NCBI GenBank assembly: GCA_902781705.1
Contig: CACZKE010000008.1
Span: 78,894 to 142,893, forward strand
Source of the DNA: an uncultured Bacteroidia bacterium
GTDB lineage: Bacteria; Bacteroidota; Bacteroidia; Bacteroidales; UBA932
DNA length: 64,000 nucleotides
Direction: 5' to 3'
A program made the translations under genes and the position numbers. A model generated the notes under the pieces. That model did no database searches and was not told where the DNA came from. It saw only the letters and a list, made by a program, of their open reading frames with translations. The first letter of the stretch is position 1. Every line of letters begins with the position of its first letter. This document shows positions 42,307 to 56,781 of this stretch, piece after piece.

Positions 42307-44895
42307 ATGATGAAACAGACCTGGAAATGGATGACGGTGGGAGCCGCGGCGCTCCTGCTCGCTGCCTGTACGGCAAAGGCTCCCGTCGGGGATGCCGGAA
42401 AGAAGGTCGATGCCCTGGATGCATCGGCCTGGGAGGTTTCCCAGTGGATTTCGGTGAAAGACGCTCCCGTGGTGACGAGCCGCGAGAAAAGTGACCGCGC
42501 GGCCGACGGAGCCAGTTGGTTCCTCGCGGAGGTGAAACCTTCGAAGAAGGTCGCCTCGGCCGTCTGGATGACCACCGGACTCGGTGTCTATGAGTTGTAT
42601 GTCAATGAGATCCCCATCGGTAAGGAAGTCCTGAAGCCGGGATTTACCCATCCCCTGAAGACCCGTCGCAGTTTCACCTATGACGTGACGGCCGCCTTCA
42701 AGACCGGCAAGGGTAACGTGAACACCCTCGCCGCACAGGTGACTCCGGGCTGGTGGGCTGACAAGATCGTCACGACCGGGGATTACAAGGGCATGCTGGG
42801 CGAAAAAGTCGCCTTACGGGGTGTCCTGGAACTGACCTATGCCGACGGCACCAAGGAATGCTTCGGCACGGATACGGAGCACTGGAAGGCCGGTATCGCG
42901 GGTCCGGTGAAACATGCCGCCATCTTCGACGGTGAGGAATTCGACGCCCGGGAGCTGCCCGGCTACGCCACCCCGGAGAATCTTTCCGCTCCCGTCGTGA
43001 ACACCGAGTTCCAGGGCGATATCCTGCCTTCCGAGGGTGCTGAGATCTATCTGCGGAAGGACCTGGCCCTGAAGCCCGTCCGGACCTATGTCTGGCAGGG
43101 CGTCGATGGCGCCGTCGAATCCGAGGACCGGGAGACGGCCGCTTACGGAAAGGTCCATATCCTTCGGGAATACAAGGCCGGCGAGGTCGTAACGCTGAAC
43201 CCTGGCGAGACCCTCGTCGTGGACTTCGGCCAGAACGCCGCCGCCGTGCCCTGCTTCGAGTTCAAGGCCGCTGCGGGTACCGTCCTCACCTGCCTGCCCG
43301 GTGAACTCCTGAATGACGGCAACGGTGCGAAGAAGCGTGGCATGGACGGTCCGGAAGGAAGTGTCCACCGCGACAATCTCCGCATGTCGGAGGAAGGCAT
43401 GATCCTCCGGTACACGTTTGCCGATACGAAAGATTATGCGACTTATTATCCGCACTGCACTTTCTTCGGCTACCGCCTGATTTCCGTCACCGCGACGGAA
43501 CCGGTCCAGTTCAAGGCCATCGGCTCCATCCCCGTCACCTCCATCGCCGAGGATCTCGAAACCGGTACGCTCGTAACCGGTAACGACCTGATCAACAAAC
43601 TCATCTCCAATACGGTCTGGGGCCAGCGCTCCAACTACCTCTCCGTCCCGACCGACTGCCCGCAGCGTAACGAGCGCCTGGGTTGGACGGCCGATACGCA
43701 GGTCTTCACCGAGACCGGCACCTTCTTCGCCAACACGGACCGCTTCTTCCACAAGTGGATGAAGGACATGCGGGACAGCCAGAACGAACTCGGTGGCTAT
43801 CCGGGCGTCGCCCCGTTCGCCCAGTACGGCAACGAGAAGATGCGCCTGGGCTGGGCTGATGCAGGCGTCATCGTCCCCTGGACCGTCTGGAAGCAGTTCG
43901 GTGACAAGGAGATCGTCGCCGAGAACTGGGATGCGATGGAACTGTTCATGAAGCATGTCAACGACACGAAATACGACCACGCCGCCCTCGTTTCCGAGAA
44001 TGGAAACTACCAATGGGCCGACTGGCTGAGTTACGAGGCGCTTGAAAGTTGCACCGGAAAGGCCTTCGTCAACGCGGAGACCCGGAAGCAGGCGGAGACC
44101 TACTGGAGTTACCTGGGCGGCTGCTACTGGGCCATCGACGCCGGCATGATGCGCGACATGGCTGCCGATACGGGCCGGGACGCCGCGAAATACGAGGCGA
44201 TGGCCGCCGAGGCCAAGGCATACCTGAAGTCCCGCTTCCTGAATGCCGACGGCACCTTCAAACTCCCGGTCCTGAACACGATGCAGACCCCGGCCCTCTT
44301 CGCCCTGAAACTGAACCTCGTGGAAGGGAAAGCGAGAGAGAATATGATCGCACGCCTGAAGAAGAACTTCGCGGACCACGGCAATTGCCTCCAGACCGGT
44401 TTCCTGGGAACCTCCATCCTGATGCAGACGCTCACGGACAACGGCCTCTCCGACATTGCCTACGAACTCCTCTATCAGCGGAAGAACCCGAGTTGGCTCT
44501 ATTCCGTGGACAACGGCGCCACCACGATCTGGGAGCGCTGGAACAGTTACATGGTGGACGAAGGCATGGGCCCGAACGGCATGAACAGTTTCAACCACTA
44601 TGCCTATGGCTGCGTCTGCCAGTGGCTGTGGGAGACGGCTGCCGGCATCAATGCGGATCCCGCGAAGCCCGGTTTCAAGCACATCGTCCTGAAACCCGTC
44701 CCTGACAAGCGCCTGGGATACTTGGATGCGTCCTATCAGTCAGCTTCCGGTCTTATCAAGAGCAGTTGGAAATATGAGGGCGATACCTGGACGTGGACCT
44801 TCACCATTCCGGAAGGAACGACGGCGACTGTCACCCTACCGGGCGAGACACAGTCCAAAGCGTATGAAGCAGGAACCTATACGCTCGTGAAATAA
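42307..44895 (+). CDS. GH78 alpha-L-rhamnosidase, lipoprotein
   Basis: 862 residues from ATG 42307; an in-frame upstream extension is rejected because it runs through the preceding gene and would lose the lipoprotein signal (AALLLAAC). N-terminal sandwich domains include LGVYELYVNEIPIGKE and YDVTAAFKTGKGN. The barrel carries the canonical DCPQRNERLGWTAD (from Asp450), with LVSENGNYQWADWLSY and TIWERWNSY farther on, the last holding the probable catalytic Glu. Expected activity: release of terminal alpha-L-rhamnose in the periplasm. It is the last member of the glycosidase block before the signalling operon. Confidence 0.93.
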   Translation: MMKQTWKWMTVGAAALLLAACTAKAPVGDAGKKVDALDASAWEVSQWISVKDAPVVTSREKSDRAADGASWFLAEVKPSKKVASAVWMTTGLGVYELYVNEIPIGKEVLKPGFTHPLKTRRSFTYDVTAAFKTGKGNVNTLAAQVTPGWWADKIVTTGDYKGMLGEKVALRGVLELTYADGTKECFGTDTEHWKAGIAGPVKHAAIFDGEEFDARELPGYATPENLSAPVVNTEFQGDILPSEGAEIYLRKDLALKPVRTYVWQGVDGAVESEDRETAAYGKVHILREYKAGEVVTLNPGETLVVDFGQNAAAVPCFEFKAAAGTVLTCLPGELLNDGNGAKKRGMDGPEGSVHRDNLRMSEEGMILRYTFADTKDYATYYPHCTFFGYRLISVTATEPVQFKAIGSIPVTSIAEDLETGTLVTGNDLINKLISNTVWGQRSNYLSVPTDCPQRNERLGWTADTQVFTETGTFFANTDRFFHKWMKDMRDSQNELGGYPGVAPFAQYGNEKMRLGWADAGVIVPWTVWKQFGDKEIVAENWDAMELFMKHVNDTKYDHAALVSENGNYQWADWLSYEALESCTGKAFVNAETRKQAETYWSYLGGCYWAIDAGMMRDMAADTGRDAAKYEAMAAEAKAYLKSRFLNADGTFKLPVLNTMQTPALFALKLNLVEGKARENMIARLKKNFADHGNCLQTGFLGTSILMQTLTDNGLSDIAYELLYQRKNPSWLYSVDNGATTIWERWNSYMVDEGMGPNGMNSFNHYAYGCVCQWLWETAAGINADPAKPGFKHIVLKPVPDKRLGYLDASYQSASGLIKSSWKYEGDTWTWTFTIPEGTTATVTLPGETQSKAYEAGTYTLVK

Positions 44896-44907
44896 AAGGA
44901 TTTTTCT

Positions 44908-44915
44908 TATATTTG
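44908..44915 (+). promoter_or_regulatory. -7 promoter element of the signalling operon (TATATTTG)
   Basis: Exact TAnnTTTG 21 nt before the ATG at 44937, in an AT-rich gap after the GH78 stop. The -33 region has no obvious TTTG. It is the only promoter-like element seen before the chain of genes that runs to 54778. Confidence 0.55.
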
Positions 44916-44936
44916 TGGGTTAAACCGTCACGCACG

Positions 44937-47021
44937 ATGCATGTGAACGATTTCCCCGTGTCGACTCCCGCGATGGTGACCTGGTTTATCTGCCTCACCG
45001 TCGCGGTGGTCTTTTTCGTCCGTTTCCTGAATTCCCTCCTGCGGAAGGGCCACAGGGGGTGGATGGGATCCGTATTCGGCCTGTTGCTCGCCCTGGGTAC
45101 GGCCGTCCATGTCCTGCTGCTTTCCCGGTCCTCCCACACGGTGACGGATGGGAACTGGATCCAACTTACCCTCACCTCCCTGGTGGCCGGGTTGGAAATG
45201 TTCGTGGGACACACCGTAGTCTTCGATGACATCATCGCCGCGGTCATCTTCCGGGCGCCGGGCTTGCTGATGGCCTACCTGACCGTGTTCTCCTTCATCC
45301 TGGCCTTCTCGTTCGTGATGGTCTTCCAGATCCTCCCGCGCCGCCTGAAGGACCGTCTCTGGCTCGGGACCCACCGGCATGCCGCCATGCGGGACCGCAA
45401 GAACCATATCTTCCTGGGAATCAGTCGCAGTGCGAAGATCCTGGCGAAATCCATCCTGGAAGACTGGGCCGCGGAGAAGGATGCGTCGGACCAGGGATAC
45501 CTGATTTTCGTGGACATCCCGTTCGCGGAAAGCGTCCATGCGGAGATTTCCTTCGGGGATATTTTCACGAGCCTGGTCAGCCGGCGGAAGGAAGTCGGCC
45601 TGGACGAGGAACTGGGCTCGGACCGTTTCGTCCTTCTCAAGGGACATGCACCTGCCTCCGGACGGGGGGAAGACCTTGCGGATGCCGTCGGCCTTCCGCG
45701 CCTGCGTCCCTGGTTCCACAATGCCAGGACCAGCGTGTATTTCCTCCTGGACGACGAAGAGGAGAACCGTCTGATGGTGGCGGACCTGTCGCAGGACCCT
45801 GCCGTGCAGGCGAAAGCCTTCTGCCGGGTGGACCGGCGGGACGGGTACAATTCCATCTATACGGCGACGCAGAACCGCCTGCGCCTGGTGGATTTCCACT
45901 ACCTGTGCGTCCAGGACCTGAAATTCGAGCGTCCCGAACTCCATCCGGTACATTTCGTGGACATCGCCCGTGACCGGAAAGGCCGTCCGCTCGGCTATGT
46001 GGACGGGGAATTCCACGCCCTGCTCGTCGGTTTCGATACCACGGGGCAGGAGGCGATGCGCTTCCTGTATGAGTTCGGCGCTTTCGTGGGAAAGGACGGC
46101 CGGCGGATCCCGACGACCATCGACATCTTCGGAGACGGGCTGGAAGTGGCCCGGGGTGGATTCCTGAACCGGTTCCCGGGACTCCGGGAAGACCGCTCCG
46201 TCGTCTGGAACGGCGACTCCGTGGGCTCGGATGGTTTCTGGCGGCGTTGCGAAGCCCTTGTTGACAAACTGAATTATGTGATCGTCGCCCTGGGATCGGC
46301 CCAGCGGAACATCGAGCTTTCCATCCAGTTGCTGCAACTCTCGGCCCGTCTCGGCAAGGATTTCTCCCGGATGGTCATCCTGACCCGGGTGGATGTGGCG
46401 GACCGGCGTCTGCAGGGGCTTCTGGACTTCTATAACCGGACGTACTATCCCGGAGGACATCCTGTCATCCGGCCTTTCGGCATGTCCGAGGCCGTGTGGA
46501 CCCTGCCTTCCATTACCGGGAAGGACCTCAAGGACCAGGCAACCCGTTTCTACGACGCCAGCCAGCGCTCCGAAGGAAAGACCGGAACGTGGGAATCCCG
46601 GCGGGAAAGCCTCCTGGCGGGATCCGACCAACGCCTTCGGAACCGGATGGCGCTGCTGCGGCAGCAGGGACAGGACCTGTCCCGGTCGGCCTTCATCCCC
46701 ACGCTGCGGGAACTGGCCGGTCCCGAAGTGGAAAAGGAGGCGGCCCGGATCCCGCTCGTGTTCGAAGGTGTCCATTTCCCGGAAAATGGAACCGTCGCCG
46801 ATATCCTGGAACACCTGGCGGCGCAGGAACATCTCCGCAGCAACTGCTATCACCTTTCCGGGGGGTATGTCTCCGGAGAACCGGACGAACTTTTACGGCG
46901 CGTCCCTCAACTGAAAGATTATATCGAGGTGAATGACCCTCGTGAACAACACCGGGACTGGGTCGTCGTCCGGACGGCCCTCACCGTAGAAACCATGGAC
47001 AAGACTGATGAGCGAGATTAA
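44937..47021 (+). CDS. Three-TM membrane protein with large Rossmann-like (TrkA-N/RCK-like) cytoplasmic region
   Basis: 694 residues from ATG 44937; a TTG 24 nt upstream lies inside the promoter. Three hydrophobic segments (about 12-33, 43-63 and 98-130) are followed by a basic FQILPRRLKDRLW and a soluble region. The soluble region has two alpha/beta stretches that look nucleotide-binding: NHIFLGISRSAKILAKSIL (about 155) and FHALLVGFDTTGQEAMRFL (about 360), reminiscent of tandem TrkA-N/RCK domains. A C-terminal LAAQEHLRSNCYH segment recalls the EHLRWN motif of Bacteroidota TrkA/RyR-type proteins. I do not recognise a defined family. It may sense nucleotides or ions and heads the operon, overlapping the (p)ppGpp synthetase gene by 14 nt. 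Confidence 0.6.
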   Translation: MHVNDFPVSTPAMVTWFICLTVAVVFFVRFLNSLLRKGHRGWMGSVFGLLLALGTAVHVLLLSRSSHTVTDGNWIQLTLTSLVAGLEMFVGHTVVFDDIIAAVIFRAPGLLMAYLTVFSFILAFSFVMVFQILPRRLKDRLWLGTHRHAAMRDRKNHIFLGISRSAKILAKSILEDWAAEKDASDQGYLIFVDIPFAESVHAEISFGDIFTSLVSRRKEVGLDEELGSDRFVLLKGHAPASGRGEDLADAVGLPRLRPWFHNARTSVYFLLDDEEENRLMVADLSQDPAVQAKAFCRVDRRDGYNSIYTATQNRLRLVDFHYLCVQDLKFERPELHPVHFVDIARDRKGRPLGYVDGEFHALLVGFDTTGQEAMRFLYEFGAFVGKDGRRIPTTIDIFGDGLEVARGGFLNRFPGLREDRSVVWNGDSVGSDGFWRRCEALVDKLNYVIVALGSAQRNIELSIQLLQLSARLGKDFSRMVILTRVDVADRRLQGLLDFYNRTYYPGGHPVIRPFGMSEAVWTLPSITGKDLKDQATRFYDASQRSEGKTGTWESRRESLLAGSDQRLRNRMALLRQQGQDLSRSAFIPTLRELAGPEVEKEAARIPLVFEGVHFPENGTVADILEHLAAQEHLRSNCYHLSGGYVSGEPDELLRRVPQLKDYIEVNDPREQHRDWVVVRTALTVETMDKTDERD

Positions 47022-48081
47022 ACTGGACCCCCATTCGGAGGCCATCCTCCAGGAATACCGGGACAACCTTCCGGTGTTCGAGAAACTGCAGGCGACGGTG
47101 CCGGAACAGATCCGTGCCGTCTTTGCAGAGACGGGCATCGTCGTCGCTTCCGTCGAGAGCCGGATCAAGACGGAGGGTTCCCTCGCCGGAAAACTGGAAC
47201 TCAAGGGAACGAAGTATGCTTCGCTCGCCGATATCACGGATATCTTCGGCGTCAGGATCATCACGTTCTATACCGACGACGTGGACAAGGTCGCCTCGGT
47301 GGTGGACCGCCTGTTCGAGGTGGACTGGGACAACTCCGTGGACAAGCGGAAACTCCACGAAATCGACAGTTTCGGCTATCTTTCACTGCATTATATCTGC
47401 AGCGTGCAGGACTGCCCCTACCGTTTCGAGATCCAGATGCGGACCATCCTCCAGCATGCCTGGGCGAACATGAACCATGACACCGGCTACAAGAGCGGCG
47501 TGGAGGTTCCGAAGGAATACCTGCGGAACATGAACCGGCTTGCCGGCATGCTGGAACTCATCGACGAACAGTTCAGCCGTATCCGGACGGACATCAACGA
47601 CTATCGGCGCAAAGTGCAGTCGCTGGTCGCATCGGGACATCTGGAAGACGTACCGTTGGACGGCGACAGTTACCGGAGTTACCTCAAACTCCTGCCTTTC
47701 GACAAACTGAACCGCCGGATCGCCTCCGTGAACCAGGCGGAGATCCAGGAAGTGACCCTGATGCCTTACCTGCCCGTCCTGCGGGCCCTGGGTTTCCAGA
47801 CGCTCGGCGACGTGGACCATCTCATCCGCGACTATTCCGAGGCGGCCTACCAGATCGCCTGCTACCAGATCAGTGTGACGGACCTGGACATCCTTTCCTC
47901 CTCCGTCGGTCCGCAGAACCTGTGCATCGCCTACCTGTTGAAGCAGGGGAGTGGCCGTGCCGGCATCCGCCTGATGCTGGATACCCTGAACGGTCCGTCC
48001 GAAAGCAATGACATGATGGCGGAGTACATCGTGGAGCAGGCGCAGGACCTTTCCTTCATGCATACAAAATCCGAATTATGA
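47008..48081 (+). CDS. RelA/SpoT-type (p)ppGpp synthetase domain protein with extra C-terminal region
   Basis: 357 residues. Residues about 20-210 are a RelA/SpoT synthetase domain: SRIKTEGSLAGKL (basic substrate motif), DIFGVRIITFYTDDVDKV, DSFGYLSLHYIC and FEIQMRTILQHAWA (from about 140, with Glu141), all signature segments. There is no HD domain, TGS or ACT, so this is a stand-alone synthetase. The C-terminal 150 residues are helical and not recognised. It probably transfers pyrophosphate from ATP to GTP or GDP; some related small synthetases instead act as toxins on ATP or tRNA. A separate HD hydrolase gene lies two genes downstream. Confidence 0.88.
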   Translation: MSEIKLDPHSEAILQEYRDNLPVFEKLQATVPEQIRAVFAETGIVVASVESRIKTEGSLAGKLELKGTKYASLADITDIFGVRIITFYTDDVDKVASVVDRLFEVDWDNSVDKRKLHEIDSFGYLSLHYICSVQDCPYRFEIQMRTILQHAWANMNHDTGYKSGVEVPKEYLRNMNRLAGMLELIDEQFSRIRTDINDYRRKVQSLVASGHLEDVPLDGDSYRSYLKLLPFDKLNRRIASVNQAEIQEVTLMPYLPVLRALGFQTLGDVDHLIRDYSEAAYQIACYQISVTDLDILSSSVGPQNLCIAYLLKQGSGRAGIRLMLDTLNGPSESNDMMAEYIVEQAQDLSFMHTKSEL

Positions 48082-48713
48082 ATACCCAAGAAAGATTCCT
48101 TGTAACCGTCAACCGGGAACTGGGTTCCGGCGGCCGTTCCGTTGCCCGGAAACTGGCGCAGCGGCTGGACGTACGGTTCTACGACAAAGTCCAGATCGAG
48201 GGGCTCGTGCGCGAGTTCAAACTCACCGAGGAGCAGATCGAGCGGCTCAAGGCCAGCAAACGCAGTTGGTGGACCGAATTGTGCGACAAGATCTCCCGGG
48301 CTCCCGGGGCCGATCCCTACCGGCAGGGGGATCCGGAAACGGTCACCTCCGACGACCTGTTCAGGTCGGAATCCCGGATCCTTCGGGAAATCGCCGGCGA
48401 GGAATCTTGCGTGATTGCCGGTCGTGCCGCCTTTTTTGTCCTGAAGGCCCATCCCAACAAGGTCCGGGTGTTTATCCGGGCTTCGATGGCCCATCGGATG
48501 GAGCGGGTGATGCGGAAACAGGGCCTGTCCGAGGAGGCAGCAGCCTCCGCCATCGAACGGGTGGATGCCGGACGTGAGAACTATACGAAGAAATATGCAG
48601 GCGTAAGCCGGTATGATACCCGGAATTACGACCTGGTCATCAACATGGACGGTCTCACGGAGGACGATGCCGTGGACCTGATCATGGAATATATCGAACG
48701 GAGTGGGAAATAA
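48078..48713 (+). CDS. Cytidylate kinase-like family protein
   Basis: 211 residues, ATGA overlap with the synthetase gene. The protein matches the cytidylate-kinase-like family (PF13189): it begins FLVTVNRELGSGGRSVARKLA, a modified P-loop, then LDVRFYDKVQ, CVIAGRAAFFVLK (a GRG-like core) and VRVFIRASMAHRMERV. Repeated basic residues and a C-terminal RYDTRNYDLVINMD segment fit the LID and closing strand of such kinases. True Cmk phosphorylates CMP, but members of this family are often of unknown specificity. Its place between synthetase and hydrolase suggests a nucleotide-linked role. Confidence 0.85.
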   Translation: MNTQERFLVTVNRELGSGGRSVARKLAQRLDVRFYDKVQIEGLVREFKLTEEQIERLKASKRSWWTELCDKISRAPGADPYRQGDPETVTSDDLFRSESRILREIAGEESCVIAGRAAFFVLKAHPNKVRVFIRASMAHRMERVMRKQGLSEEAAASAIERVDAGRENYTKKYAGVSRYDTRNYDLVINMDGLTEDDAVDLIMEYIERSGK

Positions 48714-49278
48714 ACCGTTGAATACCGAATTCCTGGACCGCGCGATCGTATTCGCCGTCCGCGCCCATGCCGGGACCGAGCGCCGGGGCAAGGGATTTCC
48801 CTATGTCGTCCATCCGTTGGAGGCGATGGCCATCGCCGCCACGATGACGGCCGACCAGGAAATCCTCGCCGCCGCCGCCCTGCATGACGTCGTGGAGGAT
48901 ACGGAGGTCACGCTGGAGGAAATCCGCACCCTTTTCGGGGGGCGTGTCGCCTCCCTGGTCCAGGTGGAGAGCGACCGGACGGAAGAAGGTTTGGACTGGC
49001 GGGAACGGAAACTGGATTCCCTCAGGCGTCTGTCCGCTTCTTCCCGGGACGCGCAGATTGTCGCCCTCGGGGACAAACTCTCCAACATGCGCGCCATTGC
49101 GCGGGATTATGCCACCCTGGGCGAGCCTTTCTGGACGTTGTTCCGTGTGAAGGAAAAAGCGGTCCATGCCTGGCGTTACCACGCCCTTCTCGATGCATTT
49201 GCCGAACTCCGGGACACCTATGCGTACCGGGAGTTCGAATTTTTGGTGAACCGGGTTTTCCCCCGGGAAAAGGATTGA
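48703..49278 (+). CDS. Small HD-domain (p)ppGpp hydrolase-like protein
   Basis: 191 residues if started at GTG 48703, which overlaps the previous gene by 11 nt; a TTG at 48718 (186 residues), 4 nt after the stop, is an alternative. The RSH hydrolase motifs are complete: FPYVVHP (His37), AALHDVVEDT (His61, Asp62, Glu65, Asp66) and ALGDKLSNMRAIARD. No synthetase part is present, so it is a stand-alone hydrolase of the SAH/Mesh1 kind. With the synthetase two genes upstream it forms a synthesis/removal pair for an alarmone. Confidence 0.87.
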   Translation: MGNKPLNTEFLDRAIVFAVRAHAGTERRGKGFPYVVHPLEAMAIAATMTADQEILAAAALHDVVEDTEVTLEEIRTLFGGRVASLVQVESDRTEEGLDWRERKLDSLRRLSASSRDAQIVALGDKLSNMRAIARDYATLGEPFWTLFRVKEKAVHAWRYHALLDAFAELRDTYAYREFEFLVNRVFPREKD

Positions 49279-49282
49279 CAGG

Positions 49283-50128
49283 ATGGAAGAACTCAGGGCG
49301 ATCCCCGTCGATATGGCGGACTACGAATATGCCGGCGAAGGAGCCAATGCAATCAGTTACAATCATCGTTTCAATCACGATGTGATGCTCAAGCTTTATT
49401 TCCCGGGGAAGGTCCGTCAGCCGATGGACGAGGTCCTGCTTGCCCGGCGCGTGTACGACCTGGGCATTCCTACGCCTGAACCCGGTGATTTCGTCACGGA
49501 CGGGGAGCGTTACGGCATCCGCTTCCGCCGGATCCGGGACAAGGTGTCCGTTGCCCGGGCTGTCAGTCTTCATCCGGAAGAAGTCGCCCGATATGCGGAG
49601 GAAATGGCCCGGATGTGCCGGCTCCTCCATGGAATCCATGTCGATCCTGCCGCTTTCGAGAGCGTGAAAGTGCGCTATCGGTCCCTGTTGGAGGAATCCC
49701 CGCTTTTCACGACGGTCGAAAAGGACCGTCTCCTGCGTTTTATCGAGGACGCACCCGATTCGGATACGGCCCTCCACGGCGACCTTCAGTTCGGCAATCT
49801 CATATTCGACGGGACGGGCCGGTACTATTTCATCGACCTGGGCGATTTCGGCTACGGGTATCCGCTGTTCGACGTGGGGATGGTTTATGTGACGGCCTAT
49901 CTCAGCGACCCTGGTTTCGTCCGGGAGGCCTTCCATATGGAGCCGGAGACCGCCGTCCTGTTCTGGAAGGCCTTCGCGCCCGCCTATTTCGGAGCGGACC
50001 GGCCGCTTTCCGATATCGAAGACGAGGTCCGTCCGTACGCCGGACTGAAAACACTGCTGGTGGAACGGGATATGGGCTGTAAGATGCCCGCTTTCCGCGC
50101 TGCCCTCCAATCCGTCCTTCAACCCTGA
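49283..50128 (+). CDS. APH-family small-molecule kinase (aminoglycoside phosphotransferase-like)
   Basis: 281 residues, 4 nt after the HD gene. The eukaryotic-kinase-like fold is indicated by an N-lobe strand pattern (YEYAGEGANAISY, MLKLYF with a Lys), the catalytic loop LHGDLQFGNLIF (HGDxxxxN, Asp as base) and the metal motif FIDLGDFGYG. The phosphate acceptor is unknown. A TIGR02172-type protein would fit the length. Given its neighbours it more likely modifies a small metabolite or a protein in this pathway than confers antibiotic resistance; that is an inference. Confidence 0.82.
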   Translation: MEELRAIPVDMADYEYAGEGANAISYNHRFNHDVMLKLYFPGKVRQPMDEVLLARRVYDLGIPTPEPGDFVTDGERYGIRFRRIRDKVSVARAVSLHPEEVARYAEEMARMCRLLHGIHVDPAAFESVKVRYRSLLEESPLFTTVEKDRLLRFIEDAPDSDTALHGDLQFGNLIFDGTGRYYFIDLGDFGYGYPLFDVGMVYVTAYLSDPGFVREAFHMEPETAVLFWKAFAPAYFGADRPLSDIEDEVRPYAGLKTLLVERDMGCKMPAFRAALQSVLQP

Positions 50129-50132
50129 CGCC

Positions 50133-52328
50133 ATGGCTAGACAGAAATTCAACAAGGCAACGGTCAATTATGTCCTTCAGGGACTGGCCCTCGTCATCGT
50201 CGCGATGATCACCCTGGAAGGGACGTCGCTGGTCCAGTATTTTTTCTCGCGGGACATGATGCAGGAGGAGGCCACCCTGCGTGCACAGAGTCGCATCAAC
50301 ACGACCAATATCCAGATTACCAATGTGATGGATCAGGTCGAGACTGCGCTGGACAACAACCTCTGGTCGGTCCATACCATCATGGCCAAGCCGGACAGCC
50401 TGTGGTCCCTGACACAGCGCATCGTCCGGAACAACGATTTCATCTACGGTTCCGCCATTGCCTTCGTCGAGAATTATTTCCCGGAACGCGGCTACTGGTT
50501 CTCTCCCTACTCCTTCCGGAACGGCACGCAGATCGACAGCGTCCAACTGGGGAACGAAGAATATGACTATCTGAAAAAGGAGTGGTTCGTCAAGCCGCTG
50601 GAATCCGGAGAGGAATACTGGTCGGAACCTTATTTCGACACCGGCGGCGGCGAGAAATTGATGACGACCTTCTGTGCACCCGTCAAAGACGTTGACGGGA
50701 AAGTCTTCGCCATCCTGACGGCCGACGTGTCCCTGGAATGGCTCACGGACCTGGTGGGGGACGTGGAAGAGTATCCCGGTGCCTTCAGCATGCTCATCAG
50801 CCGGACCGGAAAACTGATGGTTTCCCCGTCCCCTGCCTTCGTGATGAAGACGACGGCCCAGGAAATCACGGCGACCCTGGATGACATGACGGCGGCCGAC
50901 GTGGCGAATTCGATGCTGGCCGGTCGCTCAGGAAGCGCATCGGTCATGTATAAGGGGGAGAAGGAAATGGTATGTTATGCGCCGATCGAGCGGACAGGCT
51001 GGTCCATGGCCGTCATCATCCCTTACGATGAGGTTTTCGGCGAGATCCGGAAAGTGAACGCCATGGTCCGTGCATTGCAGATCCTCGGCGTCCTCCTTCT
51101 GGCGTTCATCCTGTACCTGGCCGTCCGGAATCAGGTCAAACTGCGGGATGTCTCGGAGAAGAAAAACCTGATCGAGAACGAACTCCATATCGCCCGTGAC
51201 ATCCAGATGTCCATGCTTCCGAAGACCTTCCCGCCGTATCCGACCCGGAAAGACCTGGAGATGTATGGAACCGTCATCCCGGCCAAGGAAGTGAGCGGGG
51301 ACCTGTACGACTTTCATATCCATGACGAGCGTCTCTTTTTCTGCATCGGTGACGTAAGCGGGAAAGGTATCCCCGCATCCCTCGTCATGGCGACCACCCA
51401 GAGTCTGTTCCGGATGACGTCGGCCAATGAACACAGTCCGGCGCGCATCGTCGCCGCTATGAACGACTCCATGGTCGAGGCGAACGAGAGCAATATGTTC
51501 GTCACCTTTTTCGTGGGAGTCCTGGACCTGACGAACGGTCACCTGCGGTATTGCAATGCGGGACACAACGCCCCCGTGGTGATGCATGCCGGGGAAAAGG
51601 CTCGCCTGCTCGAGGTGGAATCCAACCTCCCGCTGGGCGTGATGCCGGGTTATCCGTATCACGAGCAGGAAACGGAGATCGTTTCCGGAGAATCGCTTTT
51701 CCTGTATACGGACGGCCTGACGGAGGCGGAGGATATCCATCACCGCCTGTTTGGAGAAGAAAGGATGCTCCAGACGGCCACCCGGGTGGCTTCCGCTCCG
51801 GTCGACGAGCAGTTGAAGGGAATGGAAGAAGCCGTCAGGAACCATGCCGGGCAAGCCGAACAGAGTGACGACCTGACGATGCTCGTCGTCCGGTTTGTCC
51901 TCGGTGCCGGCCCCATGGGGCTCCGGCGTTCCTTGACGCTGCACAACGACATCCGCCAGATTTCCCGCCTCGCCGATTTCGTAACGGGTATCGCGAGCGA
52001 GTCGGGGATCGACCAGGCCACGGCCATGAGTCTCAACCTGGCGTTGGAGGAAGCCGTTTCCAACGTGATCCTCTATGCCTATCCGGAAGGGACCGAAGGT
52101 ACGGTGGATGTCGATGCCGCCATCTGGGAGGACCGGATCGATTTCCGGATCACCGACAGCGGCCGCCCCTTCGATCCTACGCTTTCGGTCGGTCCCGACC
52201 TGACGCTGAAAGCGGAGGAACGACCCATCGGCGGACTGGGCATCTATCTGGTGAAGAAAATCATGGACCATGTGTCCTATACCCGTGAAAACGGGAAGAA
52301 CATCCTGTCAATGACAAAAAATAGATAA
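50133..52328 (+). CDS. Membrane sensor fused to SpoIIE-type PP2C phosphatase and RsbW-like kinase domain
   Basis: 731 residues. TM1 at about 14-35 and TM2 at about 310-332 bracket a periplasmic dCache-like sensor (AIAFVENYFPERGYWFSPY, FAILTADVSLEWLTDL). After a short linker helix, the PP2C/SpoIIE domain spans about 370-585 with VSGDLYDF, IGDVSGKGIPASL, CNAGHNAPVV and QSDDLTMLVV, the metal-binding aspartates in place. Residues about 600-728 form a HATPase_c_2 domain with the N box LALEEAVSNVILYAYP, DSGRPFDPT and GGLGIYLVKK. Phosphatase and anti-sigma-type kinase in one chain, beside a STAS gene, make a complete partner-switching loop driven by an external signal. Confidence 0.92.
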   Translation: MARQKFNKATVNYVLQGLALVIVAMITLEGTSLVQYFFSRDMMQEEATLRAQSRINTTNIQITNVMDQVETALDNNLWSVHTIMAKPDSLWSLTQRIVRNNDFIYGSAIAFVENYFPERGYWFSPYSFRNGTQIDSVQLGNEEYDYLKKEWFVKPLESGEEYWSEPYFDTGGGEKLMTTFCAPVKDVDGKVFAILTADVSLEWLTDLVGDVEEYPGAFSMLISRTGKLMVSPSPAFVMKTTAQEITATLDDMTAADVANSMLAGRSGSASVMYKGEKEMVCYAPIERTGWSMAVIIPYDEVFGEIRKVNAMVRALQILGVLLLAFILYLAVRNQVKLRDVSEKKNLIENELHIARDIQMSMLPKTFPPYPTRKDLEMYGTVIPAKEVSGDLYDFHIHDERLFFCIGDVSGKGIPASLVMATTQSLFRMTSANEHSPARIVAAMNDSMVEANESNMFVTFFVGVLDLTNGHLRYCNAGHNAPVVMHAGEKARLLEVESNLPLGVMPGYPYHEQETEIVSGESLFLYTDGLTEAEDIHHRLFGEERMLQTATRVASAPVDEQLKGMEEAVRNHAGQAEQSDDLTMLVVRFVLGAGPMGLRRSLTLHNDIRQISRLADFVTGIASESGIDQATAMSLNLALEEAVSNVILYAYPEGTEGTVDVDAAIWEDRIDFRITDSGRPFDPTLSVGPDLTLKAEERPIGGLGIYLVKKIMDHVSYTRENGKNILSMTKNR

Positions 52329-52333
52329 GAGAA

Positions 52334-52636
52334 ATGGAAATCCACATCACTGAATCGAAAGGGACGCTGACCGCCCGTTTCATCGGCCGCCTGGATACGC
52401 CGGCTGCTGCCGACGCGACCCGCGACGTACAGCCCTTGATCGACGGGGCCGACAAGACTATCATCCTGGATTGCAGCGAGATGGCTTACATCTCCAGTTC
52501 CGGTCTCCGTATTTTCCTGACCATCCGCAAGGCGGCTGCTGCCAAAGGCGGAAAGGTTATCATCGAGGGCCTGTCCAATGAGATCCGGCAGGTTTTCATG
52601 ATGACCGGCTTCCTCCAGTTATTCGAGATTCGGTAG
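52334..52636 (+). CDS. STAS-domain anti-sigma factor antagonist (SpoIIAA/RsbV-like)
   Basis: 100 residues, 5 nt after the phosphatase gene. A single STAS domain: FIGRLDTPAAAD, then TIILDCSEMAYISSSGLRIFL, where the SSSGLR segment holds the serine that anti-sigma kinases phosphorylate, and VIIEGLSNEIRQVF near the end. The HATPase domain of the upstream protein is its likely kinase and the SpoIIE domain its phosphatase. The downstream target is not evident; no sigma factor gene is in the window. Confidence 0.92.
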   Translation: MEIHITESKGTLTARFIGRLDTPAAADATRDVQPLIDGADKTIILDCSEMAYISSSGLRIFLTIRKAAAAKGGKVIIEGLSNEIRQVFMMTGFLQLFEIR

Positions 52637-52639
52637 GTC

Positions 52640-54778
52640 GTGAAAGAAATCTATATCAAGCATATCGCTGGACTCCTGCAGGTGAAGGACTGGCAGGTGG
52701 AGAACTGTGCGGAACTCTTCGCGGAAGGATGCACGGTCCCCTTCATCAGCCGGTACCGGAAAGAGCGCACCGGCGGTCTTTCCGATGTCGAGGTCGCCGA
52801 AATCAAGCATTGGACCGAGGCCTTTGCGGACATGGAAAAGCGCAAGGCATCCATCCTTTCCACCATCGAAGAGCAGGGAAAACTGACACCGGAACTGAAG
52901 CGGCAGATTGAATCCTGCGTCGAATCCGGCATCCTCGAGGACCTTTACCTCCCTTACCGTCCCAAGCGGAAAACGCGGGCTACGGTTGCCGTTGCGAAAG
53001 GCCTGGAGCCGCTGGCCGACCTTCTCTGGAACGGGAAATCCCGTCGTCCGGAAGCCGATGCCGCCCCGTTTGTGAAAGGGGAGGTCGCTTCCGTGGAGGA
53101 AGCGCTCTCCGGGGCCCGGGATATCATCGCGGAGCGTCTGTCCGAGACGGCCCAGGTCCGGGAGAACCTGCGGAGCGTGTTCCGGACGCGGCGGGTCCTG
53201 TCCAAGGCGACCAAGGCGGCGGAGAAGGACCCGGGCGCGGCGAAATACCGGACCTATTTCAACTATTCGATGCCGCTTTCCAAGATCCCTTCCTATGCCC
53301 TTCTGGCACTGCTCCGGGCGGAAAACGAGGGATTCCTGCGTCTATCCATCGATGCCGACGCCGAAAAGTGCGGCAACAAGATCTACTACGATTTCTGTCA
53401 GGCGAAGGGGTATCCCGCTCCGGAAGCCGGCCGGGAGATCCGGACGGCCGTGGATGATGCCTACAAGCGCCTGCTGGAGCCCTCCATCACCGGTGAAGTC
53501 CTCCGGGAAGCCAAGCGGAAGGCCGATATCGATTCCATCCGGGTTTTCGGAGAGAATCTGCGTCAGTTGCTCCTGGCTGCGCCGGTGGGGCAGAAGAGGA
53601 CGATGGCCATCGATCCGGGATTCCGGACAGGATGCAAGGTCGTCTGCCTGGACGAACACGGAAACCTGCTGGACCATACCGTCATTTTTCCGCATCCGCC
53701 GGCCGCCAAAAAAGTGCAGGCCATCATGACGGTGGCGGACCTGGTGGAAAAATACCGCATCGAGGTCATCGCCATCGGCAACGGGACGGCCGGACGTGAA
53801 ACGGAGGAATTCGTGCGGAAGGTCGGACTGGATGACAGCGTCCGTATCTTTTCCGTCAGCGAGGACGGAGCGTCGGTCTATTCCGCCTCCGACGTGGCCC
53901 GGGAAGAGTTCCCGGAATATGACGTGACCGTACGCGGGGCCGTTTCCATCGGCCGCCGCCTGATGGACCCGCTCGCGGAACTGGTGAAAATCGACCCGAA
54001 ATCCCTGGGAATCGGGCAGTATCAGCACGACGTGGACCAGACGCTCCTCAAAGAGCAGCTGGACAATACGGTGGAAAGTTGCGTGAACAGCGTGGGCGTC
54101 AACCTCAATACGGCCAGTCCCTACCTCCTGCAGTATGTGTCGGGCATTGGTCCCGTGATGGCAGGGAATATCGTCGAATACCGTAACCAGGCAGGTGGAT
54201 ATACTTCCCGTGAACAACTCCTGCAGGTGCCTCGGCTGGGGCCGAAGGCCTATCAGCAGTGCGCCGGTTTCCTCCGGATACCGGAGGCGAAAAACCCGCT
54301 GGACGGCAGTGCCGTGCATCCGGAGGCCTACCATATCGTGGACCGCATGGCGAAGGACCTGGGCGTTTCCACCCGCGAACTGGTGGGCAATGCGGACCTT
54401 TGCCGGAAGATCAAGGCCCAGGATTATGTGGAAGGGGATTTCGGCCTGCCGACGGTGAATGACATCCTGCAGGAACTCGCCAAACCCGGACGGGATCCCC
54501 GGGAGTCGGCCCAGGAGTTCTCCTTTGCCGAGGATATCCATGAAATCGACGACCTGAAGGAAGGAATGGAACTTCCCGGTATCGTGACGAACCTGACCTC
54601 CTTCGGCGCCTTCGTGGACATCGGCCTGCATGAGAACGGGCTGATCCATGCCTCCCGGATGGGGGTGAAAGGCATGGCGGATCCTTCAAAGGTTCTCAAG
54701 TTGCACCAGACTGTCCGGGTGCAGGTGATTTCCGTGGACCTGGACCGAAAACGTATCGGACTCAGATTGCTTAAATAA
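52640..54778 (+). CDS. tex: RNA-binding transcriptional accessory protein Tex
   Basis: 712 residues from GTG 52640, 4 nt after the STAS stop. Domains in order: Tex N-terminal helical region (FISRYRKERTGGLSD), YqgF-like RNase H fold (RTMAIDPGFRTGCKVV), helix-hairpin-helix (NTASPYLLQYVSGIGPVMA) and a C-terminal S1 RNA-binding domain (GIVTNLTSFGAFVDIG, ending KRIGLRLLK). The length and arrangement match Tex from other bacteria. Tex binds nucleic acid and associates with transcription. It is probably read through from the signalling operon, because the gap before it holds no promoter. Confidence 0.95.
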   Translation: MKEIYIKHIAGLLQVKDWQVENCAELFAEGCTVPFISRYRKERTGGLSDVEVAEIKHWTEAFADMEKRKASILSTIEEQGKLTPELKRQIESCVESGILEDLYLPYRPKRKTRATVAVAKGLEPLADLLWNGKSRRPEADAAPFVKGEVASVEEALSGARDIIAERLSETAQVRENLRSVFRTRRVLSKATKAAEKDPGAAKYRTYFNYSMPLSKIPSYALLALLRAENEGFLRLSIDADAEKCGNKIYYDFCQAKGYPAPEAGREIRTAVDDAYKRLLEPSITGEVLREAKRKADIDSIRVFGENLRQLLLAAPVGQKRTMAIDPGFRTGCKVVCLDEHGNLLDHTVIFPHPPAAKKVQAIMTVADLVEKYRIEVIAIGNGTAGRETEEFVRKVGLDDSVRIFSVSEDGASVYSASDVAREEFPEYDVTVRGAVSIGRRLMDPLAELVKIDPKSLGIGQYQHDVDQTLLKEQLDNTVESCVNSVGVNLNTASPYLLQYVSGIGPVMAGNIVEYRNQAGGYTSREQLLQVPRLGPKAYQQCAGFLRIPEAKNPLDGSAVHPEAYHIVDRMAKDLGVSTRELVGNADLCRKIKAQDYVEGDFGLPTVNDILQELAKPGRDPRESAQEFSFAEDIHEIDDLKEGMELPGIVTNLTSFGAFVDIGLHENGLIHASRMGVKGMADPSKVLKLHQTVRVQVISVDLDRKRIGLRLLK

Positions 54779-54791
54779 ACCATAACGAGAT

Positions 54792-56762
54792 ATGAAGAGA
54801 TTATTTGTTCTGCTGACCGCTCTTTTTGCCGTGGCGGCCCTGCAAGCCAAAGACGTTGAACTGAAATCCCCGGACGGCCGGATTACGGTGACCGTCAATA
54901 CGGGGTATCACGTCTCCTATTCCGTGGAACGGGACGGTGTCCGCCTGCTGGCCCCTTCCAAGATTTCGATGACGCTTCTGGACGGTGTCCTGTACGGGGG
55001 CAGCGACAATTTCCGGGTTTCCCGGCGTACGGTCCGGCAAAATATCCCGGCCCGGGTTTTCAAACGGGCGTCCGTCAAGGACCATTTCAATGAGATGACC
55101 CTCTCCGCCGGCAACTACGAGATTATTTTCCGTGCCTATGACGACGGCGTTGCCTACCGGTTTGTCTCGAAGGAAAAGGCACCCGAGATCGCCGTCGCTT
55201 CCGAGCAGGCCGAATTTGCCTTCCCGGCCGACTGGAAGGCCTATGTTCCCTATGTGGCCCGGGATTATTCCTCTTATGAGCCGCAGTTCTTCAATTCTTT
55301 CGAGAATACGTATTCCCACCATACCATCACCCAGTGGGAGCGGGGACGGCTGGCTTTCCTGCCGATCACGGTGGAGGCGCCGAACGGCATCAAACTCTGC
55401 ATCACCGAGTCCGATCTGCTCGACTATCCGGGCATGTACCTGACCAACCGGGGCGGCGGCATTGCCCTTCGGGGGGTCTTTGCCGGTTACCCGATGCAGG
55501 TCGTGCAGGGCGGCCACAACATGCTGCAGGGTCTGGTCCGTTCCCGGCGGAATTTCCTGGCCAAGGTTCCCGGTCAGACCTCCTTCCCCTGGCGTACGGT
55601 CATCATTGCGGAAAAAGACCGTGAACTGGCCCAGAACGACATGACCTGGCGGCTGGCCCGCCCGGCGGACAGCCGTGACTGGTCCTGGGTGAAACCCGGA
55701 AAGGTGGCCTGGGACTGGTGGAATGACTGGAATATCTACGGCGTTGATTTCGAGGCCGGTATCAACAACGATACATACAAGTACTATATCGATTTCGCCT
55801 CGGAGCACGGCATCGAGTACGTCATCCTGGACGAAGGTTGGGCCGTGAACAAGGAGGCCGACCTGATGAAGGTGGTTCCGGAGATCGACCTGCCGATGCT
55901 TTGCGCCTACGCCAAGGAAAAGAACGTCGGGCTGATCCTCTGGGCCGGGTACTGGGCATTCAACCGCGACATGGATGCCGTTTGCCGTCATTATTCCCAG
56001 ATGGGCATCAAAGGCTTCAAGATCGACTTCATGGACCGGGACGACCAGCAGATGGTCCAGTTCTACACGAAAGCCGCCGAGACGACGGCGAAGTACAAAC
56101 TCCTGGCCGATTTCCACGGTGCCTACAAGCCGGCCGGCCTGCAGCGCACCTGGCCGAATGTCATCAACTTCGAAGGCGTACACGGTCTGGAACAGATGAA
56201 ATGGAGCGGCCCGGAGGTCGACCAGGTGACCTATGACGTGACCATTCCGTTCACCCGCCTCGTGGCCGGTCCTGCGGACTATACCCAGGGAGCCATGCGC
56301 AATGCCACCCGGAACAATTATCGTCCCGTCAACACCGAGCCGATGTCCCAGGGTACCCGCTGCCACCAGTTGGCGGAGTATATCATCTTCGATGCGCCGC
56401 TCACGATGCTTTGCGATTCTCCTTCCAATTATCGCCAGGAACCGGTATGCACGGAGTTCATCGCTTCCGTTCCCACGGTCTGGGATGAAACGGTGGCCCT
56501 GGACGGCAAGATTGCCGAGTATGTCGTCATCGCCCGCCGCAAGGGAGCGACCTGGTATATCGGCGTCCTGGGCAATTGGGACGCCCGTGACCTGGAGATT
56601 GACCTGACTCCGCTTCAGATCTCCCCGAAGCAGGGGACTGCCTTCGTGGACGGGGCCAATGCCCATCGGGCCGCCCGGGATTTCCGGAAAGAGGAAGTCA
56701 GCGTGAACGGCCGCTGGAAGGTCCATCTGGCCCCCGGCGGCGGTGCTGTTTTGGTCCTGTAA
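54792..56762 (+). CDS. GH97 glycoside hydrolase, probable retaining alpha-galactosidase type
   Basis: 656 residues with signal peptide MKRLFVLLTALFAVAALQA. The N-terminal sandwich (VELKSPDGRITVTVN, DGVAYRFV) is followed by the GH97 barrel: KVAWDWWNDWNIYGVDF, YVILDEGW and FKIDFMDRDDQQM. Asp412 in the last motif, with Glu461 in INFEGVHG, fits the nucleophile/acid-base arrangement of the retaining GH97 alpha-galactosidases; the inverting SusB-type alpha-glucosidases use a Glu base elsewhere. It follows tex by 13 nt, so it may be co-transcribed although functionally it belongs with the glycosidase region. Confidence 0.9.
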   Translation: MKRLFVLLTALFAVAALQAKDVELKSPDGRITVTVNTGYHVSYSVERDGVRLLAPSKISMTLLDGVLYGGSDNFRVSRRTVRQNIPARVFKRASVKDHFNEMTLSAGNYEIIFRAYDDGVAYRFVSKEKAPEIAVASEQAEFAFPADWKAYVPYVARDYSSYEPQFFNSFENTYSHHTITQWERGRLAFLPITVEAPNGIKLCITESDLLDYPGMYLTNRGGGIALRGVFAGYPMQVVQGGHNMLQGLVRSRRNFLAKVPGQTSFPWRTVIIAEKDRELAQNDMTWRLARPADSRDWSWVKPGKVAWDWWNDWNIYGVDFEAGINNDTYKYYIDFASEHGIEYVILDEGWAVNKEADLMKVVPEIDLPMLCAYAKEKNVGLILWAGYWAFNRDMDAVCRHYSQMGIKGFKIDFMDRDDQQMVQFYTKAAETTAKYKLLADFHGAYKPAGLQRTWPNVINFEGVHGLEQMKWSGPEVDQVTYDVTIPFTRLVAGPADYTQGAMRNATRNNYRPVNTEPMSQGTRCHQLAEYIIFDAPLTMLCDSPSNYRQEPVCTEFIASVPTVWDETVALDGKIAEYVVIARRKGATWYIGVLGNWDARDLEIDLTPLQISPKQGTAFVDGANAHRAARDFRKEEVSVNGRWKVHLAPGGGAVLVL

Positions 56763-56773
56763 ACGGTGATTTA

Positions 56774-56781
56774 TATATTTG
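56774..56781 (+). promoter_or_regulatory. -7 promoter element (TATATTTG) of the EamA gene
   Basis: Exact TAnnTTTG followed by C, ending 6 nt before the ATG at 56788. If transcription starts at the usual distance, the message has almost no 5' leader. Confidence 0.55.

What the first reader, a model, noticed from the sequence alone, without database searches (positions are those of the whole stretch)
44937..52636. Seven-gene signalling island joining alarmone metabolism with a partner-switching phosphatase module
Seven genes on one strand, with gaps of at most 5 nt or overlaps, encode a membrane Rossmann-type protein, a stand-alone (p)ppGpp synthetase, a cytidylate-kinase-like protein, a stand-alone HD hydrolase, an APH-like kinase, a dCache-SpoIIE-RsbW fusion and a STAS protein. 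The single visible promoter is at 44908. The overlaps suggest a co-produced pathway that turns an external signal into nucleotide messengers plus a phospho-switch. I know of no described system with this set. The individual families are recognised from sequence; the joint function is inferred.
Basis: partly seen in the sequence, partly recalled or inferred. Interest (0 to 1): 0.8.

Follow-up and report, generated by a model that had tools for sequence, protein, structure and literature searches.

The report
Phospho-switch operon with alarmone enzymes
Many Bacteroidales bacteria carry a compact gene set that joins a sensor and protein on/off switch to enzymes that look able to make and break the starvation messenger (p)ppGpp, a pairing that we did not find described and that could let these bacteria set growth by an outside cue.

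Summary
The boundaries need correcting. In 112 related loci the recurrent unit is Rel synthetase + HD hydrolase + APH-like kinase + Cache-PP2C-RsbW + STAS. The cytidylate-kinase-like gene is an accessory (19/112), the membrane gene local (3/112), and the transcript probably runs on through tex and a GH97 gene.

The core is not a random run. All six domains lie together in 72/112 loci (62/89 with >6 kb on both sides), in five family groups, in many gene orders, with natural HD-APH fusions, one Rel-HD fusion, and RsbW split or fused; median gap 2 nt. Presence or absence of Rel and APH agrees in 291 of 299 genomes. Active-site residues and the STAS phospho-serine are nearly invariant.

Best reading: an extracytoplasmic-signal-gated partner switch sets alarmone turnover by the dedicated Rel/HD pair, by logic like STAS control of diguanylate cyclases in Pseudomonas. 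The STAS-Rel contact, the product, the ligand and the kinase substrate are inferred or unknown. Ten library searches listed no paper that I recognised as describing it.

The parts
44908..44915 (+). TAnnTTTG (TATATTTG), Bacteroidota-type -7 promoter box; -33 element weak by eye
   Evidence: consensus recalled
44937..47021 (+). g1, membrane protein (by eye) of unknown family; local neighbour, not core
   Evidence: no useful Pfam/NCBIfam/PDB match; in 3 of 112 loci
47008..48081 (+). g2, stand-alone RelA_SpoT synthetase with about 150-aa C-terminal extension (core)
48078..48713 (+). g3, cytidylate-kinase-like protein (accessory)
   Evidence: near Rel in 19 of 112 loci
48703..49278 (+). g4, stand-alone HD_4 small alarmone hydrolase-like protein (core)
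49283..50128 (+). g5, APH-like kinase near TIGR02172 (core)
50133..52328 (+). g6, dCache sensor - PP2C/SpoIIE phosphatase - RsbW-type kinase (core)
52334..52636 (+). g7, STAS protein with conserved Ser55 at the phospho-acceptor position (core)
52640..54778 (+). tex, 3 nt after g7, probably same transcript, not part of the module
   Evidence: beside the module in 5 of 112 loci
54792..56762 (+). GH97 retaining alpha-galactosidase, probably last gene of the transcript, not part of the module

Best explanation
A sensory partner-switching module whose output is alarmone turnover. The membrane-anchored dCache domain of g6 senses an extracytoplasmic ligand and tunes the PP2C phosphatase against the RsbW-type kinase in the same protein; these set the phosphorylation of STAS protein g7 at Ser55. 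One form of g7 then binds the synthetase g2 (possibly its conserved C-terminal extension) and switches (p)ppGpp synthesis; g4 removes the alarmone and resets the system. The APH-like kinase g5 works with the hydrolase (in some genomes they are one protein), either modifying it or acting on a small substrate of the same route. Shown from sequence: gene set, conserved linkage, fusions, intact active sites, co-occurrence. Inferred: STAS-Rel contact, product identity, direction of control, ligand, kinase substrate.
For: All six domains on one strand within 9.5 kb of Rel in 72 of 112 loci, 62 of 89 with >6 kb on each side. For comparison, beside Rel: tex 5 of 112, g1 3 of 112; three distant Rel homologues carry no module. 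15 different block strings among the 72, roughly eight orders by my grouping; median spacing 2 nt, 275 of 299 gaps <=20 nt. Natural HD-APH fusions in 20 of 83 scorable loci, a state that changes at least 6 times on a quick Rel tree; one Rel-HD fusion (L215). Rel/APH presence at E <=1e-30: both 93, Rel only 4, APH only 4, neither 198 of 299 genomes. Rel profile nearest in PDB to GTP pyrophosphokinases of RelP/RelQ type, E 4e-15 to 2e-12; HD profile nearest to Lmo0812 and other stand-alone HD chains. Rel: 15 of 18 positions checked are 112/112; HD H37, H61, D62, E65, D66, N128 99/99; STAS Ser55 92/92. STAS directly precedes Rel in several family groups. Precedent: HsbA-HsbD and SiaC-SiaD (abstracts, PMC5085249 and PMC8457831).
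Against: No contact between STAS and Rel is shown; no structure could be predicted. Synteny does not give direction of regulation. 40 of 112 loci lack at least one core domain near Rel, several with full flanks (L058, L059, L166, L168, L185, L188, L213, L217, L225), so Rel can stand without the switch. The own genome has a second PP2C-RsbW/STAS pair elsewhere, 38% identical to g6, so cross-talk or another target is possible. The co-occurrence test is not corrected for kinship, and some of its APH hits may be paralogues. Distance correlations had no background pair for comparison.
Confidence: 0.5

Rival explanations
1. [quoted passage not shown] the switch only releases it under stress.
For: HD near Rel in 99 of 112 loci; faRel is flanked by an SAH antitoxin gene (PMC11782079 passage); patchy distribution and signs of transfer between families; distant Rel homologues on a Bacteroides record with phage genes, a Vibrio phage record and small plasmids.
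Against: The Rel profile is far closer to RelP/RelQ-type chains (E 4e-15) than to FaRel2 (E 0.12) or the RelA/SpoT family chains 7ztb/9erv (E 0.14; CapRel by recall); several loci with full flanks have Rel without a nearby HD (L168, L185, L217, L218, L220, L223), though HD elsewhere in those genomes was not sought; a sensor and partner switch are not TA parts.
Confidence: 0.17
2. The partner switch controls something else (a sigma factor, the APH kinase or g4), and the synthetase is only co-expressed with it.
For: STAS/RsbW pairs classically act on sigma factors (PMC8256260 passages); switch genes and Rel/HD can be found apart.
Against: No sigma factor among the nine proteins scanned at the locus (the genome was not searched for one); linkage to Rel, HD and APH survives many reorderings; inter-domain distance correlations with Rel are 0.84 for STAS and 0.85 for PP2C over 71 loci, without a background control.
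Confidence: 0.22
3. Nucleotide or cofactor metabolism rather than signalling: Rel, HD, the APH-like and cytidylate-kinase-like enzymes make or repair another pyrophosphorylated compound, under a sensory switch.
For: Two kinases of unknown substrate travel with Rel and HD; HD-APH fusions; close g3 homologues (E <=1e-57) in 8 of 99 genomes, all 8 Rel-positive.
Against: g2 and g4 keep the recalled motif residues of alarmone enzymes; g3 is near Rel in only 19 of 112 loci.
Confidence: 0.11

Closest known systems
HptB-HsbR-HsbA-HsbD of Pseudomonas aeruginosa
   Same: a STAS-type anti-anti-sigma factor interacts with a second-messenger synthase (abstract of PMC5085249); fused phosphatase-kinase upstream (recalled)
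   Different: output is c-di-GMP; no RelA_SpoT, HD hydrolase or APH kinase, and no dCache sensor (recalled)
SiaABCD of Pseudomonas aeruginosa
   Same: a signalling network in which SiaC binds and activates the nucleotide synthase SiaD (abstract of PMC8457831)
   Different: diguanylate cyclase output; SiaB/SiaC belong to other families than RsbW/STAS (recalled)
RelP/RelQ-type small alarmone synthetases
   Same: stand-alone RelA_SpoT domain, conserved motifs
   Different: g2 has about 150 more C-terminal residues, scores 52 against a 320-bit NCBIfam cut-off, and sits with a hydrolase and a switch
FaRel/ATfaRel toxSAS-SAH modules
   Same: synthetase next to a small alarmone hydrolase (passage)
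   Different: weak similarity to the FaRel2 chains in PDB (E 0.12); extra sensor, switch and kinase
RsbU/RsbW/RsbV sigma-B type partner switch and Rv1364c
   Same: PP2C, RsbW-type kinase and STAS; g6 matches the Rv1364c chain over 386-676
   Different: no sigma factor at the locus

Membership tests
Partner-switching (PP2C / RsbW / STAS) module | PP2C phosphatase with metal-binding Asp residues | tested here: met
   PF07228 2.7e-53; Asp positions checked 92/92
Partner-switching (PP2C / RsbW / STAS) module | RsbW-type HATPase kinase with N and G boxes | tested here: met
   PF13581 7.9e-28; 8 positions checked 92/92
Partner-switching (PP2C / RsbW / STAS) module | STAS protein with phospho-acceptor serine | tested here: met
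   Ser55 92/92; position assigned by recall, phosphorylation itself not tested
Partner-switching (PP2C / RsbW / STAS) module | sigma factor partner encoded with it (sigma-B subtype) | tested here: not met
   none among the nine proteins scanned, 44937-56762
Small alarmone synthetase (SAS) | RelA_SpoT domain without HD/TGS, catalytic residues kept | tested here: met
Small alarmone synthetase (SAS) | makes (p)ppGpp | not testable with these tools
   needs an in-vitro assay
Small alarmone hydrolase (SAH) | stand-alone HD_4 with HD, ED and N motifs | tested here: met
   H61, D62, E65, D66, N128 99/99
toxSAS-SAH toxin-antitoxin | synthetase of a toxSAS subfamily | tested here: inconclusive
   FaRel2 chains E 0.12 against 4e-15 for a RelP/RelQ-type chain speaks against; no subfamily tree was made
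toxSAS-SAH toxin-antitoxin | toxicity neutralised by the partner | not testable with these tools
   needs expression assay
SiaABCD / Hsb pathway | diguanylate cyclase output | tested here: not met
   no GGDEF domain among the nine proteins scanned
dCache_1 AI-2 receptor (CahR) | five residues R126, W128, Y144, D146, D173 (PctA numbering, PMC9540692 passages) | tested here: not met
   W 84/86, Y 85/86, D 83/86, D 86/86, but the Arg position is Q 37, K 15, M 10 and others; mapping to PctA by eye

The most novel reading that the evidence does not exclude
The first partner switch whose direct target is (p)ppGpp-type alarmone metabolism: an outside cue, through a STAS protein, sets a dedicated Rel/HD pair beside the genome's two other, longer RelA_SpoT proteins, with a new role for an APH-like kinase that is physically coupled to the alarmone hydrolase.
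Probability: 0.42. Interest if true: 0.85.

Novelty: new variant of a known kind. Interest (0 to 1): 0.7.

Why it matters
Alarmone control is usually thought of as starvation sensing by ribosome-bound or metabolite-sensing RSH enzymes (general knowledge). A module that puts alarmone turnover under an extracytoplasmic sensor through a protein phospho-switch would be a new input route for the stringent response in Bacteroidales, including rumen lineages (record titles of L038, L041-L043; Rel present in those genomes). It would extend STAS control of messenger synthases from c-di-GMP to alarmones, and would give a role to TIGR02172-like kinases. It is testable with five proteins.

Tried and rejected
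Random run of housekeeping genes: rejected for the core by conserved linkage through many gene orders; accepted for g1, tex and GH97. toxSAS TA: kept as a rival, lowered. Anti-phage defence: PADLOC gave only part-length similarity (PDC-S33 3.2e-14 for g2; pVip-kinase 2.3e-7 for g3). AI-2-type dCache sensor: Arg not conserved. Identity of g1: nothing useful. Structure of g2: the prediction tool was off. Relatives of g2 on plasmids or phages: only <=38% identical partial matches in 6 plasmid records (5 shown) and 1 phage record. g3 as an anchor: of 21 loci fetched around g3 homologues, near or distant, the six-gene set was found at 4 (L030, L032, L038, L039) and only g3 at nearly all others. Relatives outside Bacteroidota were not sampled in whole genomes.

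Limits of the counts. Of 98 Rel places in 97 family-f1 genomes 74 were examined (own genome included) and 24 were not fetched; of 21 in f2, 17; of 12 in f81, 10; of 7 in f79, 7; plus 1 of f41 and 2 of f101. L231 had no strong Rel and was dropped, leaving 112. HMMs were built from the same loci. Some loci are cut by contig ends. The Rel alignment A4 used 66 of 76 cluster representatives. In the Rel/APH profile, G968, G996 and G963 have weak or partial Rel hits (the first two are Rel-only), and some genomes have several APH hits, so a paralogue may stand in. The 99 genomes are assumed to lie within the 299 because the handles recur; one of two close g3 copies in G091 has an inner stop. The tree is a quick one with 34 open forks of 109.
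Full report
What is there. The seven ORFs are present at the stated coordinates, on one strand, spaced -14, -4, -11, +4, +4 and +5 nt. Family searches give RelA_SpoT (g2), Cytidylate_kin2 (g3), HD_4 (g4), APH and a near match to TIGR02172 (g5), dCache-SpoIIE-HATPase_c_2 (g6) and STAS (g7); g1 matches nothing useful. A TAnnTTTG box (Bacteroidota -7 consensus, recalled) lies at 44908. In the 64-kb window this motif occurs 9 times on + and never on -; by my reading against the ORF list 8 of the 9 sit just upstream of a gene. The next one after 44908 is at 56774, so the likely transcript holds nine genes, with tex and a GH97 alpha-galactosidase after g7. A sigma-70-type scan of 43500-54500 found 7 sites against 3.5 in shuffles, and terminator-like sites at the shuffled rate. 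Close packing is common in this window and is not by itself telling.

Own genome. The assembly (3.07 Mb, 43 contigs) has two other RelA_SpoT matches in open frames of 747 and 713 residues and a second STAS plus PP2C-RsbW pair on another contig, 38% identical to g6. So g2 is a third synthetase-domain protein, and the switch in the module has a paralogue.

Distribution. A profile of g2 (E <= 1e-30) matched 9 of 393 genomes sampled from the order, in 6 genera of 6 families, own genome included; 97 of 299 in the window's family; 12 of 31 (one weak), 21 of 79 and 7 of 81 in three other families. In 395 genomes sampled over the phylum, 4 matched: the own genome and three weak matches, which stood without the module. 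The family is thus patchy and, in these samples, its close members lie in the order of the window.

Neighbourhoods. In 112 loci with Rel, HD was found near Rel on the same strand in 99, RsbW in 90, STAS in 90, PP2C in 89, APH in 87, g3 in 19, tex in 5 and g1 in 3. All six core domains were together in 72 of 112, and in 62 of 89 loci with more than 6 kb on each side; the 72 come from five family groups. They give 15 block strings, of which some differ only by a missed domain; I group them as roughly eight orders, such as Rel-HD-APH-PP2C/RsbW-STAS, PP2C/RsbW-STAS-Rel-APH-HD, RsbW-PP2C-STAS-Rel-HD/APH and STAS-Rel-g3-HD/APH-PP2C/RsbW, with median gap 2 nt and 275 of 299 gaps at most 20 nt. HD and APH are one protein in 20 of 83 scorable loci, and on a quick Rel tree this state changes at least 6 times; RsbW fused or split changes at least twice. 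Rel and HD are fused in L215. A set kept through so much reordering is best explained by joint function.

Loci that do not fit. Forty of 112 lack at least one core domain by these searches. Some are cut by contig ends (for example L161, L173, L181). Others are not: L058 and L059 hold only Rel and HD; L166, L188, L213 and L225 hold Rel, HD and APH without the switch; L168 and L185 hold Rel with no other core gene on its strand; L220 and L223 hold the switch and Rel without a nearby HD or APH. In L058, L168, L217 and L223 genes that look, by eye only, like parts of an amino-acid-type ABC transporter lie upstream. So Rel is the constant by choice of query; the other parts are strongly but not absolutely tied to it.

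Phylogenetic profile. In 299 genomes, Rel and this APH type are both present in 93, Rel alone in 4, APH alone in 4 and neither in 198 (Fisher p 7e-67, not corrected for kinship). In genome G934 they co-occur on different contigs. Close homologues of g3 (E <= 1e-57) occur in 8 of 99 genomes, all 8 Rel-positive, although g3 homologues of any closeness (E <= 1e-5) occur in 74 of 99; of 7 genomes that brought g3 homologues from the named collection, 5 have Rel.

Active sites. Positions that I recall as motif positions are mostly kept: Rel 112/112 at 15 of 18 positions checked (R52, K54, K62, D78, R83, Y124, H128, E141, Q143 among them; D75 109/112; two positions vary); HD 99/99 for H37, H61, D62, E65, D66, N128; APH 87/87 for K37, H165, D167, N172, D185 (D188 84/87); PP2C aspartates 92/92; RsbW 8 positions 92/92; STAS Ser55 92/92. 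The set was picked by similarity, so this shows constraint within the family only. The Rel profile is nearest to RelP/RelQ-type chains and far from FaRel2; the HD profile is nearest to Lmo0812 and other stand-alone HD chains; APH is weakly like choline kinase, E 0.003. g2 has a C-terminal extension of about 150 residues with invariant positions and no family match there.

Mechanism. The gene set is what one expects of a partner switch with a messenger synthase as target: sensor-phosphatase, kinase, STAS, synthase, and a hydrolase for reset. Two known cases in Pseudomonas have a STAS-type or STAS-like protein acting on a diguanylate cyclase: HsbA with HsbD (abstract, PMC5085249) and SiaC with SiaD (abstract, PMC8457831). 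I therefore favour STAS control of g2 and reset by g4, with g5 tied to g4. Shown: set, linkage, fusions, intact sites. Inferred: contacts, direction, product, ligand, kinase substrate. The dCache domain keeps four of the five residues that define CahR-type AI-2 receptors but not the arginine, so its ligand is open.

Rivals. A FaRel-like toxin with SAH antitoxin (passage) fits the Rel-HD pair and the patchy spread, but less well the sequence affinity and Rel without a nearby HD. Control of another target by the switch cannot be excluded. A metabolic role for the kinases is open.

Known or not. Ten searches of the held open-access library listed no paper that I recognised, by title or start of abstract, as joining SpoIIE or STAS proteins with small alarmone enzymes. 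Five were directed at the combination: 22, 32 and 45 returned nothing; 31 and 85 returned two papers each, seen as listings only. Of the papers listed I saw passages of PMC10434055, PMC3153485, PMC8256260, PMC9540692 and PMC11782079 and the abstracts of PMC5085249 and PMC8457831. The 2011 RSH survey's row for Bacteroidia names Rel and RshB, 8 genomes with 1-3 RSHs each, with one more column marked that the text does not let me name (passage, PMC3153485). Subscription papers and preprints were not searched. I place it as a new variant of a known kind: known parts and a known logic with an output not described in what I could search.

Noticed in passing
window 4619, 8688, 28402, 42286, 44908, 56774, 62028, 63523: TAnnTTTG occurs 9 times on the + strand and 0 on the -; by my reading these 8 are just upstream of ORFs (the ninth, 13127, is inside one), so it is a usable promoter mark for this genome.
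   Followed up: partly
G000:C5:58014-58687 (L232, L235): Second PP2C-RsbW + STAS pair in the same genome, 38% identical to g6; no RelA_SpoT match on that contig.
   Followed up: partly
L242:5989-7062 (Bacteroides finegoldii plasmid record): Lone distant Rel homologue (34.8% identity) between a hypothetical gene next to terminase and an HNH gene, opposite in strand to its neighbours, on a record with phage capsid genes.
   Followed up: no
Vibrio phage record PQ189320.1 6613-7236: Distant Rel homologue (33.6%) in an 8-kb phage record, annotated hypothetical.
   Followed up: no
L058 10344-12895, L168 9635-12182, L217 9547-12138, L223 4278-6007: Genes that look by eye like ABC transporter parts upstream of Rel or of the switch; a hint of a nutrient input.
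   Followed up: no
L204, L205: A pair of Rel from family f2 (pair support 99) nested within f1 rows (enclosing branches 86 to 97, quick tree): probable transfer between families. Both have g3 beside Rel, which the f1 rows of that clade lack near Rel.
   Followed up: partly
window 44937-47021: Membrane protein (by eye) with no useful match to any family or solved structure; beside this module only in the window, L038 and L039 among 112 loci.
   Followed up: partly
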